Notes under the pieces: generated by a model
Told to the model about the DNA's origin: nothing
Database searches by the model: none
The model's input: only the letters and a program-made list of their open reading frames with translations
In this document: piece after piece, positions 53,921-58,807 of the stretch
Position numbering within the stretch: position 1 is the first letter of the stretch
How the letters are laid out: every line of letters starts with the position of its first letter
Translations under genes and position numbers: made by a program
Assembly: GCA_002897675.1 (NCBI GenBank)
Contig: BDSU01000024.1
Span: 1-64,000 of the forward strand
DNA: 64,000 bases
Direction: 5' to 3'
Origin: a bacterium BMS3Abin02
GTDB taxonomy: Bacteria > Actinomycetota > Acidimicrobiia > Spongiisociales > UBA4744

Positions 53921-54862
53921 TCAAGCCCATTTTTCGCGAGCTACGATGCTCCCGACCGTGCGGTCACCTCCCATCACCGGTACCACCCTCACGGACTCGA
54001 GCGCCCGACCGCCATCCCGGCCGACAAAACCCAAGTGGTCGAGCAGCGCGACCATCGCGGCGCCCGTCGGCCGCGATGAGCCGTCCCAGGATTTCACGGC
54101 GAGACCCATCTGGCCGCGAATCGACACACCGAGGCTTCCCTCGGCACCGACCTTTGCCGCTGCATCGAGCCAGGTCGCAATCAGTGACGGCGCCAAGCCC
54201 TGGTCATAGGTGAGGGCCGGATATCGATGCATCGCGTCCCATGCATACGCCAAACGATCCTGTGATCCAAGAACCGCGTAGGCGCGGGCGAGACTCCTCA
54301 CACTCCCACGAAATACAGGCGCTCCGCAGCCGTCGATTCCTACCGGTCCCGGATCGTGTCCGACGACTTCGGCCATCATGTCGAAGGTCCTGCGCTGTAG
54401 GGGATGCCCGGGGTCGAGGTAGGTCTCGATCGGCCAGTCCTGGGCAACGCAGGCACGCAGCATCGCCGCATGTTTCCCCGAGCAATTGTGCCATACGCGC
54501 TTCGGATGCTGATAGCCGGCTGCAACGACCCGGTCGCGGGCCTCGGCGGACGATGGCCACGATGGGGGACATTGCAGTGCAGCCTCATCGAGTCCGACCT
54601 CGGTGAGCATCGACCCGACGATCGCCACATGGACAGGGTGACCCCGGTGACTTGCGCAGGCCACGGCCATCTGCTCGGGGACGAGGTCGGCACCCAGCTC
54701 TTGGGACACGGTTGCCTGGAACGGCTTCGCCGCCGAGCGCAGAAAGAAGACCCGATCGATATCTCCAAGAGAGGCCACCAGTGCTCCCTCCGGAGTTACG
54801 GCTGCGATCGCACCGTCGTGGGTCGACTCCACCAGGCCGGAGCGAACGACCTCGGCGAGCAC
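53921..54862 (-). CDS. L-asparaginase II-like protein (AnsA/PF06089 family)
   Basis: A 313-residue enzyme of the plant-unrelated asparaginase II family. RSAAKPFQA, CASHRGHPVHV, HNCSGKHAAML and GIDGCGAPVF are the conserved blocks. It probably hydrolyses asparagine in the cytosol. GTG at 54862 is the start. AsnA, encoded at 60073, would catalyse the reverse process. Confidence 0.9.
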   Translation of the reverse strand: MLAEVVRSGLVESTHDGAIAAVTPEGALVASLGDIDRVFFLRSAAKPFQATVSQELGADLVPEQMAVACASHRGHPVHVAIVGSMLTEVGLDEAALQCPPSWPSSAEARDRVVAAGYQHPKRVWHNCSGKHAAMLRACVAQDWPIETYLDPGHPLQRRTFDMMAEVVGHDPGPVGIDGCGAPVFRGSVRSLARAYAVLGSQDRLAYAWDAMHRYPALTYDQGLAPSLIATWLDAAAKVGAEGSLGVSIRGQMGLAVKSWDGSSRPTGAAMVALLDHLGFVGRDGGRALESVRVVPVMGGDRTVGSIVAREKWA

Positions 54863-54957: not shown

Positions 54958-55482
54958 CTAGAGAATGGTCAAGTCGGCCGCGTCGTCTTTGTAGCGTCGC
55001 ACGAGCTCGACGCGAAGAGCATCCACGACCTTCTGGACTGCCTTCCGACTCGACGAGATGTCGATCTCGGCCTCTTTCAGGGATTCGCGAATATCGCCCA
55101 GTTCATCATCGTCGATGACCGGCAACCTCGAAAGGAAGTCGTCGCCGAGCACGTGATCGATGTGCCGCCGGTGGGTGTCTGGAAGGTCCGGCGCGAAGAC
55201 CGTCGGAAACCTGGTGGGACCGCCTTGCGTCGTTTCTCCGGCGCCGAGAACGTCCGGAAGTGCCTCGATCAGAGAGCGCGTCTCTTCCCCCGCGCGGCGG
55301 CGAAGCTCGAATGCGAGGATGTCGAGCCTTCCATGCAGCAACCTGCGGTAGTACGACAGCTCCGTCTCGACTTCGTCTGCGACCTTCTTCCGGGAACGCA
55401 GCTCTGCCAGGTCGATGGACTGCAGGTCCTCCACGTAGGAAGGATGGAGAACGATGTCGATGCGGCGGCGGTATTCGGTCAT
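54958..55482 (-). CDS. rsiG: RsiG/AmfC-family c-di-GMP-binding anti-sigma factor
   Basis: A 174-residue, mostly helical protein. Two copies of the RsiG c-di-GMP motif E(x3)S(x2)R(x3)Q(x3)D are visible: a perfect one at E139-S143-R146-Q150-D154 and one at E39-S43-R46-H50-D54, where His replaces Gln. In Streptomyces, RsiG with c-di-GMP sequesters the sigma factor WhiG; no whiG is in this window. The ATG shares a TGATG junction with the M23 peptidase stop. Confidence 0.85.
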   Translation of the reverse strand: MTEYRRRIDIVLHPSYVEDLQSIDLAELRSRKKVADEVETELSYYRRLLHGRLDILAFELRRRAGEETRSLIEALPDVLGAGETTQGGPTRFPTVFAPDLPDTHRRHIDHVLGDDFLSRLPVIDDDELGDIRESLKEAEIDISSSRKAVQKVVDALRVELVRRYKDDAADLTIL

Positions 55483-56588
55483 CAGCCGCACACTCTCTTC
55501 AAGGTCGGATACGGGTTGACGGGTGAGCCACCCCCCGGATGAAGTTGGAAATGCACGTGTGTTGCTCCTCCATATGCGTTGCCGCTGTTGCCGTTATAGC
55601 CGACTACCTGGCCCTTCGTCACGCGGTCACCGGTCTTGAGGCCCGCTGCCCAGCCGCTGAGATGCGCATAGTAGAAGTCGACCCCGTACGTTGCATAGAC
55701 CCACACGGACTTGCCCCCCAGCCTGTTGTTATAGACGCGCACGGTTCCATCGGCAACGGCGACGACGGGTTGGCCCCTCGGAGCAAAGATATCGGTGCCT
55801 TTGTGGGTCCGGCCTCCCGAACGGGGAGCACCCCATGTGTCGCGAAAATACACCGCCGACGGATCCATCGGGCAGATGAACCCAGGCGTGGCAGAAGCCG
55901 GAACACCACCGGCAGCGCCCTTCCTGCGAGCGGCGGCCAGGGCGGCGGCCCGGGCCTGCTCCTGCCGGTACTTCAAGTCGATCTTGCGGCACTTGGCGCT
56001 CAGTTCTGCGGAAGCCGCGGCCTGGTCCTCCATGATCGAGTTCATCTGCTCAGCCGCCGCGGCCGCCTGCCGGCCGAGGGCGGTGAGTCGCGCTTGCTCT
56101 GCTTGCCAGTCATTTCGGATGCGTTCCAGGTCACGCTTGAGTGCGCCGAGCTGGTCGATCGACGAGATATCTTCTGCGGTCACGACCGAGAGGAACTCCT
56201 GCCCGGTGAGCGCGGCATCGACCGAAGTCGCGAACAGCACGGCCTCGGTTCCTGGCGAACCACCGTTCATGTACATCTCGACGGCTCGGTCCATGACATT
56301 GTCACGGATCTCGGCGATGACGGCGGTCTTGTCGTCGATCCGTTCCCGAAACTGGAATACGCGCAACGCCACTTCCTCCAGCTCCTGGTTGACCGCGTCG
56401 TAGTGGTTCTCGGCATCGTTGGCTCTGACGCGGGCATCGTCCAGACGCTGCTGGGCCGCCCTCGAGTCGGAGCACGCGGCGTCACGCTCCGCTTTGGTCA
56501 CCGACAGCGCCGGAAAAGCCGTCGACAGCAGCCAAACGAAGACGAGAGGAAACACGAGCAGGGTACGTCGAACCCGCAGCCATTGCAT
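55482..56588 (-). CDS. M23-family peptidoglycan peptidase with coiled coil
   Basis: A 368-residue exported protein: signal peptide ending about residue 29, a long coiled coil (about 35-215), then a LytM/M23 domain. Zinc ligands lie in RTHKGTDIFAP and THVHFQLH. The domain order matches EnvC/RipA-like cell-wall hydrolases or their activators. ATG at 56588 gives a clean signal peptide. It is co-transcribed with rsiG, linking envelope remodelling with c-di-GMP control. Confidence 0.92.
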   Translation of the reverse strand: MQWLRVRRTLLVFPLVFVWLLSTAFPALSVTKAERDAACSDSRAAQQRLDDARVRANDAENHYDAVNQELEEVALRVFQFRERIDDKTAVIAEIRDNVMDRAVEMYMNGGSPGTEAVLFATSVDAALTGQEFLSVVTAEDISSIDQLGALKRDLERIRNDWQAEQARLTALGRQAAAAAEQMNSIMEDQAAASAELSAKCRKIDLKYRQEQARAAALAAARRKGAAGGVPASATPGFICPMDPSAVYFRDTWGAPRSGGRTHKGTDIFAPRGQPVVAVADGTVRVYNNRLGGKSVWVYATYGVDFYYAHLSGWAAGLKTGDRVTKGQVVGYNGNSGNAYGGATHVHFQLHPGGGSPVNPYPTLKRVCG

Positions 56589-56707: not shown

Positions 56708-57046
56708 TTACTCCTCCCTTCCCCGGTAGATTCGCACGTCCGCCTTCTCCACGGTCACGAGGCCTTCGGTCACCATTTCGTCGAGGATCGGCAGGATACG
56801 AGTCATGGCCGTTCGACGATCGACACATTCGATCACGATGGGAAGATCCTCTGAGAGCCGCAGGACCCTGGCGGTGTGGATGGTCGAAGATGCCCCGAAC
56901 CCTTCGATTCCCCGAAATACGGTCGCACCGGCGAGTCCCTCGCGACGGAGCATGAGTACGATCGCCTCGTAGAGCGGTCTCCCCTCGTATTCATCGGATT
57001 CACCGATGAAGATCCTCAGCAAGCTGCCGTCTTCGATGTTCTCCAT
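56708..57046 (-). CDS. DUF190 protein of the fluoride-export operon
   Basis: A 112-residue PII-like ferredoxin-fold protein of the DUF190 family, which is commonly found beside crcB. RIFIGESDEYEGRPLYEAIV and GATVFRGIEGFG are the conserved parts. Probably modulates or accompanies the fluoride channel. It follows the crcB pair by 13 bases. Confidence 0.9.
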   Translation of the reverse strand: MENIEDGSLLRIFIGESDEYEGRPLYEAIVLMLRREGLAGATVFRGIEGFGASSTIHTARVLRLSEDLPIVIECVDRRTAMTRILPILDEMVTEGLVTVEKADVRIYRGREE

Positions 57047-57059
57047 CTGCTCCTCCTTC

Positions 57060-57425
57060 TCATATCATCATCCCCACCAGCAATCCGATGCCGGCCACGC
57101 CGGCTCCGATCACGAGTGTTCCCGCCACATTCCAGATCCCCGAACGGATCCCCGCAGCGCCTCCGCTCTCTGCAAGGTAGATCGTCTCGACCATCCATGT
57201 CGAGAATGTCGTATACCCACCGAGAAAGCCGGCCGTCACCGGCAGCACCCACCAGGCGTCGGGCGCGGATCCAACGACAAAACCGAGCAGTGCTGCACCG
57301 CTCACGTTGACAACGAACGTTCCCCAAGGTCGAGGGTCACGCACGCGTCGCTGGACGAGGCCGATCATCTCGTATCGTGCGAGAGCTCCGAACCCTCCCG
57401 CCAGCACGATCACGATCCAGATCAT
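57060..57425 (-). CDS. crcB: Fluoride channel CrcB/Fluc, second of a pair
   Basis: A 121-residue four-helix membrane protein. GGFGALARYEM, WGTFVVNVSGAALLGF and GFLGGYTTFSTW carry the conserved Asn and Phe of the Fluc pore. The ATG overlaps the stop of the other crcB gene; paired genes like this often encode a heterodimer. Confidence 0.94.
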   Translation of the reverse strand: MIWIVIVLAGGFGALARYEMIGLVQRRVRDPRPWGTFVVNVSGAALLGFVVGSAPDAWWVLPVTAGFLGGYTTFSTWMVETIYLAESGGAAGIRSGIWNVAGTLVIGAGVAGIGLLVGMMI

Positions 57426-57799
57426 CGTCCCCTCCCCTGGCGCAGCCCGACCGCCCCCGCAACCACTCCACACACGACGGTCGCAGCCGCGTAGGCAATC
57501 GACAGGAGGGGCGGCCGGCGCCACAACTCCAGTGCGAACGTCGAGAACGTGGTGAAGGCACCGAGAAAGCCGACGCCGAGAAGCGGCACGCTGATCACCC
57601 TCGAGCGGCCGGCAAGTCGCAGTCTCGGGAGAAGGTATCCCAACGCGTACGCCCCAACGATGTTGACACCGAAAGTCGCCCAGAGCGGACCCGGAACAAG
57701 CGAGGCTATGGCAGCTCTCGCCCCGGCACCGAAACCTCCTCCGATGAAGACGGCCAATTGACGGCGCGTCCGCACCGATCGGCGGTCATGGACGGTCAC
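57422..57799 (-). CDS. crcB: Fluoride channel CrcB/Fluc, first of a pair
   Basis: A 125-residue four-helix membrane protein with the same blocks as its partner: GGGFGAGARAAI, WATFGVNIVGAYALGYL and GFLGAFTTFSTF. It starts three bases after the stop of the MoaD-membrane fusion. I saw no recognisable fluoride riboswitch ahead of the operon. Confidence 0.94.
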   Translation of the reverse strand: MTVHDRRSVRTRRQLAVFIGGGFGAGARAAIASLVPGPLWATFGVNIVGAYALGYLLPRLRLAGRSRVISVPLLGVGFLGAFTTFSTFALELWRRPPLLSIAYAAATVVCGVVAGAVGLRQGRGR

Positions 57800-57802
57800 G
57801 GC

Positions 57803-58807
57803 TCAAACCGGCAGCAGCAGTCGCGCCACAGGGAGGAACACCATCGCGGCCAACAATCCGGCCCCCACGTCGGAAAGCACGCCCGGAACCGCCTGAGTGA
57901 AGTAGACCTCTTTCGTACTCAGCAGCGACGCGAACGCTGCTCCCACAATGAGCACGACGGCGACGAGGATGGCAACGAGGAATGCTGCGAAACCGTTGAG
58001 ATCCCAGATCAAGGCACCGACGACGCCCGTGACAATGGTTGCAACCACGCTCCCGCTCAGAGGATCCAGGACGGAGACAGAAGCTCTGCCGATGAGAAAA
58101 GCAGCCGCTCCTCTCCCCGCGATCACCATCAACAGGAACATCCAGATCCATCTCTGGCCAGATGTCGTCGAGATCCGGGCGATCACGAGCGAGCCCGTTC
58201 CTGCGGCAACAACGACCGCCGCGGTGAGCGCCACGGCGATGGAGGCGAAGTCGCGCGTGGCCGAAACGACGACGCCTTGGATCATGACGGTCAGAATGGC
58301 AATGAGAATGGCGAGTCCGATTCCCGCCGCGCCCCCGCGACCGACATTCCAGGCGTACGGGATGACCGCTCCGGCGAGAGCGGCCACCAGAAGCGGAACC
58401 TGCAGGGCGCTTCCACTCGCCACGCCATTCTCGCTGACATCCCAGGCCCAGGCGGCGGCAACGCCGACGAGAGCCGCAACGAACCAGACGGGATTGTCGA
58501 TGGCGTTGGCGCCGAGCAAGACGATGGCGGCGGCGAACGGCGCGAGGACTCTCACCTCCGGTGCGAGCGTCGCCCCGCCGGAGACCGGAGGGAGCAACGC
58601 CACTTCGTCTTCCGGTCCCACGACGCGATCGGCTTCGGCGGGATCTCCATTCACCCAGATGCGGGCATTCGCGAGACCTCTCCGAAAGTCACTCCCGTAA
58701 CGGTCGGTCGCCAGAACGAGGATCTCCTCGACGGTCGACCCGGGAATGTCCACGACCGGAGTTCCCGCGAGCTCCCGAAGGCCGGCGAACAGACGAACGT
58801 GTGCCAT
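57803..58807 (-). CDS. MoaD/ThiS-like domain fused to a multi-helix membrane protein
   Basis: A 334-residue fusion. Residues 1-78 have the beta-grasp fold of MoaD (VRLFAGLRELAG, VEDEVALLPPVSGG-like ending) and stop exactly at a diglycine (G77-G78). Instead of ending there the chain continues into about eight or nine membrane helices that faintly recall CdsA cytidylyltransferases but lack their signature. An internal diglycine cannot be adenylated unless cleaved. First gene of the operon with the crcB pair; TAGCCT lies seven bases before the ATG. Confidence 0.8.
   Translation of the reverse strand: MAHVRLFAGLRELAGTPVVDIPGSTVEEILVLATDRYGSDFRRGLANARIWVNGDPAEADRVVGPEDEVALLPPVSGGATLAPEVRVLAPFAAAIVLLGANAIDNPVWFVAALVGVAAAWAWDVSENGVASGSALQVPLLVAALAGAVIPYAWNVGRGGAAGIGLAILIAILTVMIQGVVVSATRDFASIAVALTAAVVVAAGTGSLVIARISTTSGQRWIWMFLLMVIAGRGAAAFLIGRASVSVLDPLSGSVVATIVTGVVGALIWDLNGFAAFLVAILVAVVLIVGAAFASLLSTKEVYFTQAVPGVLSDVGAGLLAAMVFLPVARLLLPV

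What the first reader, a model, noticed from the sequence alone, without database searches (positions are those of the whole stretch)
54958..55482. RsiG-type c-di-GMP anti-sigma factor co-transcribed with a cell-wall peptidase
Both c-di-GMP motifs of RsiG are visible exactly 100 residues apart; the second is perfect and the first has His for Gln at position 50. In Streptomyces, RsiG controls WhiG and sporulation; here it is directly downstream of an M23 peptidase gene with a TGATG junction. A single-substituted motif may change affinity or stoichiometry of c-di-GMP binding.
Basis: partly seen in the sequence, partly recalled or inferred. Interest (0 to 1): 0.6.

Follow-up and report, generated by a model that had tools for sequence, protein, structure and literature searches.

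The report
c-di-GMP brake on pilus genes
The window carries a genuine RsiG, a protein expected to lock up the sigma factor WhiG when the signal molecule c-di-GMP is high; in this bacterium and its relatives the lock most likely holds back type IV pili, a chemosensory system, secreted wall proteins and possibly small RNAs, rather than sporulation.

Summary
A 174-residue twin-motif RsiG lies at 54958-55482 (minus strand) and overlaps an M23 peptidase gene. The emphasis on His50 does not hold: His there is published as frequent and is present in 30 of 30 relatives examined. The same genome has a WhiG orthologue and a GGDEF/HD-GYP protein. Over 59 genomes RsiG, WhiG and GGDEF occur in 47, 50 and 50; the 9 without WhiG lack all three. 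All 30 WhiG orthologues checked keep the published c-di-GMP contacts; 12 of 12 second FliA-like sigma factors lack the lysine contact. A WhiG-like promoter pattern is enriched in WhiG-bearing genomes (148 hits, 59 control) and not in WhiG-less ones (3, 7). It precedes type IV pilus genes, CheA-like kinases, secreted CAP/M23 proteins and C-rich non-coding stretches without an Rfam match. Best reading: a known kind of switch whose twin-motif form here governs pili, the job reported for single-motif RsiG in Rubrobacter. The M23 linkage is conserved, but the peptidase survives without RsiG. Binding and regulation are inferred; no experiment was run.

The parts
54958..55482 (-). rsiG, twin-motif c-di-GMP-dependent anti-sigma factor, 174 aa
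   Evidence: Pfam PF22802 79.8 bits; PDB 6pfj_T E 1.2e-12; predicted fold, four best PDB matches all S. venezuelae RsiG
55321..55368 (-). c-di-GMP motif 1 (residues 39-54), His at residue 50 (55333-55335)
   Evidence: His in 30 of 30 loci
55021..55068 (-). c-di-GMP motif 2 (residues 139-154), matches E-X3-S-X2-R-X3-Q-X3-D
55482..56588 (-). M23 peptidase gene with signal-peptide-like N-terminus (by eye) and coiled-coil-like middle, ATGA overlap with rsiG
   Evidence: Pfam Peptidase_M23 6.6e-21; start chosen at the signal-peptide-like ATG; next to rsiG in 29 of 30 loci
53921..54862 (-). asparaginase II-like gene, conserved downstream neighbour, lost together with rsiG in family f6
   Evidence: Pfam Asparaginase_II 1.4e-86; 29 of 30 loci; absent with rsiG from eight f6 loci

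Best explanation
The protein is a twin-motif RsiG. When c-di-GMP is high, a c-di-GMP dimer binds the two helix motifs (His50 stacking in place of Gln) and the complex sequesters the WhiG orthologue encoded elsewhere in the genome (G000:C9). When c-di-GMP falls, WhiG is freed and transcribes the type IV pilus operon (DUF4388, pilB, a second T2SSE/MshEN ATPase, pilC-like), a CheA-like chemosensory gene, secreted wall proteins (LysM-M23, CAP) and probably short C-rich RNAs. Shown by computation: family membership, fold, partner presence, co-occurrence, conserved c-di-GMP contact residues on WhiG, promoter-like sites before these genes. Inferred: binding, sequestration, direction of control, the regulon itself.
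For: Family and fold. WhiG in the same genome, 274.7 bits against a cut-off of 189.6, best PDB hit S. venezuelae WhiG E 1.1e-91. GGDEF-HD-GYP protein in the same genome. RsiG 47, WhiG 50, GGDEF 50 of 59 genomes; the 9 WhiG-less genomes lack all three. K-G-R c-di-GMP contacts kept in 30 of 30 WhiG loci, lysine lost in 12 of 12 second sigma factors. Pattern CTCAAG-N13-16-GCCGAWA: 148 hits against 59 control in 50 WhiG+ genomes, 3 against 7 in 9 WhiG- genomes. 13 of 116 sites in pilB+ genomes lie within 6 kb of pilB, all on its strand, 0.5 expected; without the two genomes that gave the pattern, 11 of 101. Pilus genes directly follow a site in 16 genomes.
Against: The exact textbook flagellar pattern gave 0 hits in the own genome, and the two-mismatch form 38 against 25 control; the working pattern was found by inspection. 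Four families share descent, so counts are not independent; WhiG loss is about two events. Some lineages with RsiG and WhiG have no pilB-type ATPase (f3; G019, G026, G033, G057). Six genomes with RsiG and WhiG have only a partial GGDEF match. No transcript, binding or protein-protein data exist for this clade.
Confidence: 0.75

Rival explanations
1. A working RsiG-WhiG pair whose main output is cell-wall remodelling through the adjacent M23 peptidase and other secreted hydrolases, the pilus sites being secondary.
For: M23 next to RsiG in 29 of 30 loci; WhiG-like sites before LysM-M23 (own genome, G004), M23-CWB2 (G001), M23-SLH (G003) and CAP genes.
Against: No WhiG-like promoter before the own M23-rsiG operon; only L030 and L035 of 29 loci scanned reach shuffle p 0.03 or below. 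The M23 gene survives in eight f6 genomes without RsiG, WhiG or GGDEF. Pilus genes are the most recurrent neighbours of sites.
Confidence: 0.12
2. RsiG-WhiG controls flagella or a developmental (spore-like) programme as in Streptomyces.
For: WhiG belongs to the flagellar sigma clade (PMC8325347).
Against: No flagellin match in the own genome, 8 of 59 genomes have one, and all 8 carry a second FliA-like sigma factor that lacks the lysine contact. No sporulation genes were looked for beyond the site list; none stands out there.
Confidence: 0.05
3. The His50 form has lost or altered c-di-GMP binding, so this RsiG acts as a c-di-GMP-independent or half-site anti-sigma factor.
For: Motif 1 differs from the S. 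venezuelae residue; in six relatives only a partial GGDEF match is found.
Against: His is in 30 of 30 relatives, published as frequent and structurally suitable; a His-motif RsiG bound c-di-GMP at 25 uM alone and 1.7 uM with WhiG (PMC8325347). RsiG, WhiG and GGDEF are lost together.
Confidence: 0.05

Closest known systems
[quoted passage not shown]
   Same: Twin-motif RsiG, length, fold, both motifs, partner WhiG with K-G-R contacts
   Different: About 32% identity; His in motif 1; next to M23 and asparaginase genes; predicted output pili and chemosensing instead of sporulation
Rubrobacter radiotolerans (RsiG)2-(c-di-GMP)2-WhiG (PDB 7LQ4)
   Same: Predicted WhiG sites before type IV pilus genes, as reported there (PMC8325347)
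   Different: Rubrobacter RsiG has one motif and works as a homodimer; here two motifs in one chain, and the promoter pattern is CTCAAG-type instead of TAAA-type
6C RNA and similar C-rich small RNAs of Actinobacteria (recalled)
   Same: C-rich loops able to pair with Shine-Dalgarno sequences, followed by a strong hairpin
   Different: No match to any Rfam family at E up to 1 apart from a neighbouring tRNA and one chance hit

Membership tests
RsiG (PF22802), twin-motif form | Profile match over the cut-off, two repeats | tested here: met
   79.8 bits against 27, two stretches
RsiG (PF22802), twin-motif form | Two E-X3-S-X2-R-X3-[Q/H]-X3-D motifs | tested here: met
   Q/H allowed by PMC8325347
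RsiG (PF22802), twin-motif form | Two long motif-bearing helices, RsiG fold | tested here: met
   helices 25-63 and 125-173, mean pLDDT 80.0; best four PDB matches are RsiG, TM 0.64-0.67 on the query
RsiG (PF22802), twin-motif form | A WhiG partner in the same genome with the K-G-R c-di-GMP contacts | tested here: met
RsiG (PF22802), twin-motif form | Binds c-di-GMP and sequesters WhiG | not testable with these tools
   needs purified proteins
RsiG-WhiG switch controlling type IV pili | WhiG-type promoters before pilus genes | tested here: met
   by pattern only: 13 of 116 sites near pilB, 0.5 expected; pilus genes after sites in 16 genomes; no transcript data
RsiG-WhiG switch controlling flagella | Flagellin gene in the genome | tested here: not met
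   0 matches in G000
Known Rfam small RNA (for the C-rich stretches) | Match to an Rfam covariance model | tested here: not met

The most novel reading that the evidence does not exclude
In this order of Acidimicrobiia-like bacteria the RsiG-WhiG switch is a c-di-GMP-controlled programme that couples transcription of pili and chemosensing to WhiG-driven small RNAs with C-rich, Shine-Dalgarno-complementary loops: a fall in c-di-GMP would both build the surface apparatus and repress translation of other genes. The RNAs would form at least two undescribed families, one at a pyrE/uppS-like locus (families f1, f2, f4) and one beside an EamA-like transporter gene in f7, with look-alikes in f3, f5 and f8.
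Probability: 0.35. Interest if true: 0.75.

Novelty: new member of a known kind. Interest (0 to 1): 0.5.

Why it matters
The paper read here reports two outputs of the RsiG-WhiG switch: sporulation (twin-motif, Streptomyces) and type IV pili (single-motif, Rubrobacter). If twin-motif RsiG in this clade controls pili, the pilus role is probably older than the duplication that made twin-motif RsiG, and sporulation is a later takeover. The joint loss of RsiG, WhiG and GGDEF proteins suggests that c-di-GMP in these small genomes works largely through this one switch. The promoter pattern gives cheap, direct tests, including for a set of small RNAs not in Rfam.

Tried and rejected
Exact flagellar pattern TAAA-N14-16-GCCGATA in the own genome: 0 hits. 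TAAA-N15-GCCGATAA with two mismatches: 38 hits against 25 control, mostly inside genes. These led, by inspection, to the CTCAAG-type pattern. An Actinoplanes consensus CTCA...GCCGAA is recalled only; a paper search for it found 0 papers.

Autoregulation of the M23-rsiG operon by WhiG: not supported. Of 29 loci scanned only L030 (f7) and L035 reached shuffle p 0.03 or below, L024 and L025 were weak (0.14, 0.15), and the own locus was at 0.95 on a short 139-base stretch.

Flagellar output: rejected for this genome. M23 as an obligate partner: rejected, the gene survives without rsiG in eight of eight f6 genomes.

Named relatives: one scan of genome contigs with a single protein gave 2 loci. L113 (Acidimicrobiia MAG) is real and keeps the MoaD-like, M23, RsiG, asparaginase order; L114 (Phycisphaera) is a chance match.

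Covariance model R1 (f7 RNA) found one further f7 genome clearly (L129, E 2.4e-23) but touched the f5 and f8 stretches only weakly (E 0.02 to 0.93), so one common RNA family is not shown. Model R2 recovered only its own six members convincingly.

Full report
OBSERVATION. The ORF at 54958-55482 (minus strand) starts with an ATG that overlaps the TGA of the upstream M23 gene, encodes 174 residues, and carries E-X3-S-X2-R-X3-H-X3-D and E-X3-S-X2-R-X3-Q-X3-D exactly 100 residues apart. Pfam RsiG matches twice, 79.8 bits in all. The S. venezuelae RsiG chain aligns along residues 21-173 of the query (numbered from an upstream GTG) at E 1.2e-12, single-motif Rubrobacter RsiG chains at about 1e-5. A model made from 28 aligned relatives (mean pLDDT 80.0, pTM 0.71) has two long helices carrying the motifs; its four best PDB matches are all S. 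venezuelae RsiG and the fifth has E 1.8.

THE HIS. Of PMC8325347 I read the abstract, parts 1 and 3 of Results, sections 10 and 14 and the Discussion. It states that the motif-1 Gln is frequently His, that His can make the same stacking contact, that a His-motif RsiG binds c-di-GMP, and that RsiG occurs in 3 of 4 Acidimicrobiales species examined. Here 30 RsiG loci were examined, of 47 genomes with RsiG (own included). Motif 1 has His in 30 of 30. Motif 2 is the variable one: Gln 19, His 7, Tyr 2, Phe 1, gap 1 (L035, a contig end) at the fourth place; Asp 23, Asn 4, Glu 2, gap 1 at the last. The substitution is ordinary for the clade.

THE PARTNER. The genome (2.5 Mb, 46 contigs, 95% complete) has one WhiG over the FliA/WhiG cut-off. 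It lies among genes that read, by eye, as tsf, rpsB, xerC, an hsp20 and dprA. Its best PDB hit is S. venezuelae WhiG, E 1.1e-91. The WhiG residues K57, G61 and R62 that touch c-di-GMP in the solved complexes are kept in 30 of 30 WhiG loci, of 50 genomes with WhiG. Twelve genomes have a second, lower-scoring FliA-like sigma factor; 12 of 12 lack the lysine. All 8 flagellin-bearing genomes of 59 are among those twelve. So WhiG, rather than the flagellar sigma factor, is the likely RsiG partner. The own genome has no flagellin match.

SIGNAL ENZYMES. The own genome has two GGDEF matches: a GGDEF-HD-GYP-type protein with a GGEEF motif and a REC protein with a partial GGDEF domain reading GGDDF. 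EAL domains were not searched.

CO-OCCURRENCE. Over 59 genomes of the order, RsiG is found in 47, WhiG over cut-off in 50 and GGDEF in 50. The 9 without WhiG (all 8 of family f6, and G058) lack RsiG and GGDEF too. The three WhiG+ genomes without RsiG (G017, G038, G050; 89, 77 and 72% complete) also have no full-length match to the M23 neighbour, so an assembly gap is the likely reason. The losses are not independent; they amount to about two events.

NEIGHBOURS. M23 lies next to RsiG in 29 of 30 loci (not L039) and the asparaginase II-like gene in 29 of 30 (not L035, a contig end). In eight of eight f6 genomes the M23 gene remains while RsiG and the asparaginase gene are gone from the locus. 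The M23 linkage is conserved but not obligate.

REGULON. The textbook flagellar pattern did not work. Inspection of sites in the own genome and its congener gave CTCAAG-N13-16-GCCGAWA. It has 148 hits against 59 for the backwards control in 50 WhiG+ genomes, and 3 against 7 in 9 WhiG- genomes. Of 148 distinct site contexts held, 92 were classed as preceding an ORF start, against 1,099 of 5,692 random positions in loci of the own genome and its congener. The classifier is crude, and at least four of the 92 (L118, L129, L237, L242) are better read as RNA sites. The spacer is 15 in 53 of 92 upstream sites and 13 in 2. Thirteen of 116 sites in 36 genomes with a pilB-type match lie within 6 kb of it, all on its strand, 0.5 expected (same-contig sites were picked by eye from the list, and the pilB set by E-value). 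Leaving out G000 and G001, which gave the pattern, it is 11 of 101.

TARGETS. Clustering the first downstream ORFs gives groups of 11 (CheA-like kinases and one response regulator), 8 (secreted CAP and M23 proteins), 7 (histidine kinases), 7 (pilins, by their GFTL-type N-termini; one Pfam-tested), 6 (PilB/PilT-type ATPases) and 3 (DUF4388 first genes of pil operons). Pilus genes directly follow a site in 16 genomes. In the own genome sites precede the DUF4388-pilB operon (T2SSE and MshEN domains), a Hpt-HATPase-CheW-REC kinase, a LysM-M23 gene and a CAP gene. Of the other three own sites, C36:55082 is inside a gene, C11:52722 precedes an ORF without Pfam match, and C39:74224 precedes a non-coding stretch. 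In lineages without pilB, sites precede a CheA-like gene (G006) and a Tad-pilus CpaB gene (G020). Pfam tests covered 20 downstream proteins, and one pilin and two pilus ATPases.

NON-CODING STRETCHES. After the own site at C39:74224 come about 75 nt that are nearly identical in the congener up to the end of a strong hairpin, with one compensated pair, and diverge after it. Related stretches follow sites in G007, G012, G040 and G052, beside pyrE-like or uppS-like genes. In f7 a different RNA of about 125 nt, with two invariant C-rich loops and a long terminal hairpin, follows the site in six genomes. Rfam has no convincing match. Covariation is thin: double changes in 2 of 8 and 2 of 41 predicted pairs. 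Expression is untested.

CONCLUSION. A known kind of switch, correctly spotted; the His is ordinary. The new content is the predicted pilus and chemosensory regulon under a twin-motif RsiG, the clean joint loss of the module, and candidate WhiG-driven C-rich RNAs. On print: a search for RsiG with Acidimicrobi found 2 papers, PMC8325347 and one that by its title is unrelated. A search needing three of Acidimicrobiia, type IV pil, sigma factor and c-di-GMP found 308 papers, of which 10 were listed; none of these ten titles describes this in Acidimicrobiia (listing only). PMC13232838 (abstract only) reports that in Streptomyces a phosphodiesterase competes with RsiG for WhiG.

Noticed in passing
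G000:C39:74224 (L077 1501-1606), L151, L184, L237, L239, L242: A WhiG-like promoter pattern followed by a conserved about 75-nt non-coding stretch with an invariant CCTCCC segment and a strong hairpin, beside pyrE-like or uppS-like genes in three families; no Rfam match.
   Followed up: partly
L132 159-283, L133 1371-1495, L134 1534-1658, L195 1034-1158, L197 33-157, L129 1375-1495 (family f7): A second, about 125-nt structured stretch directly after WhiG-like sites, with two invariant C-rich loops (CTCCCTTCC, CTCCTCC) and a long terminal hairpin; look-alikes after sites in f3, f5 and f8.
   Followed up: partly
G006, G019, G020, G027, G036, G041: These genomes have RsiG and WhiG but only a partial GGDEF match (E about 1e-12 to 1e-14); where read, this class of protein is a REC domain with GGDDF. 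The source of c-di-GMP there is unclear.
   Followed up: no
L107 8498-10183: The PilB-type ATPase of the own genome has an MshEN domain, a domain known elsewhere to bind c-di-GMP (recalled), so pili may be under c-di-GMP control at two levels.
   Followed up: no
RsiG motif 2 in L018, L024, L025, L030 (f7) and L036, L042, L043 (f2): The last motif-2 residue, a guanine-reading Asp, is Asn in four f7 loci and Glu in two f2 loci, and the Gln is Tyr or Phe in three f2 loci: a better place than His50 to look for altered c-di-GMP affinity.
   Followed up: no
56708-58807 (window): Upstream of the M23 gene lie a DUF190 gene, two CrcB-type fluoride exporter genes and a MoaD-like gene. In f6 a MoaD-like gene lies directly before M23, so the fluoride set looks inserted in this lineage.
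   Followed up: no
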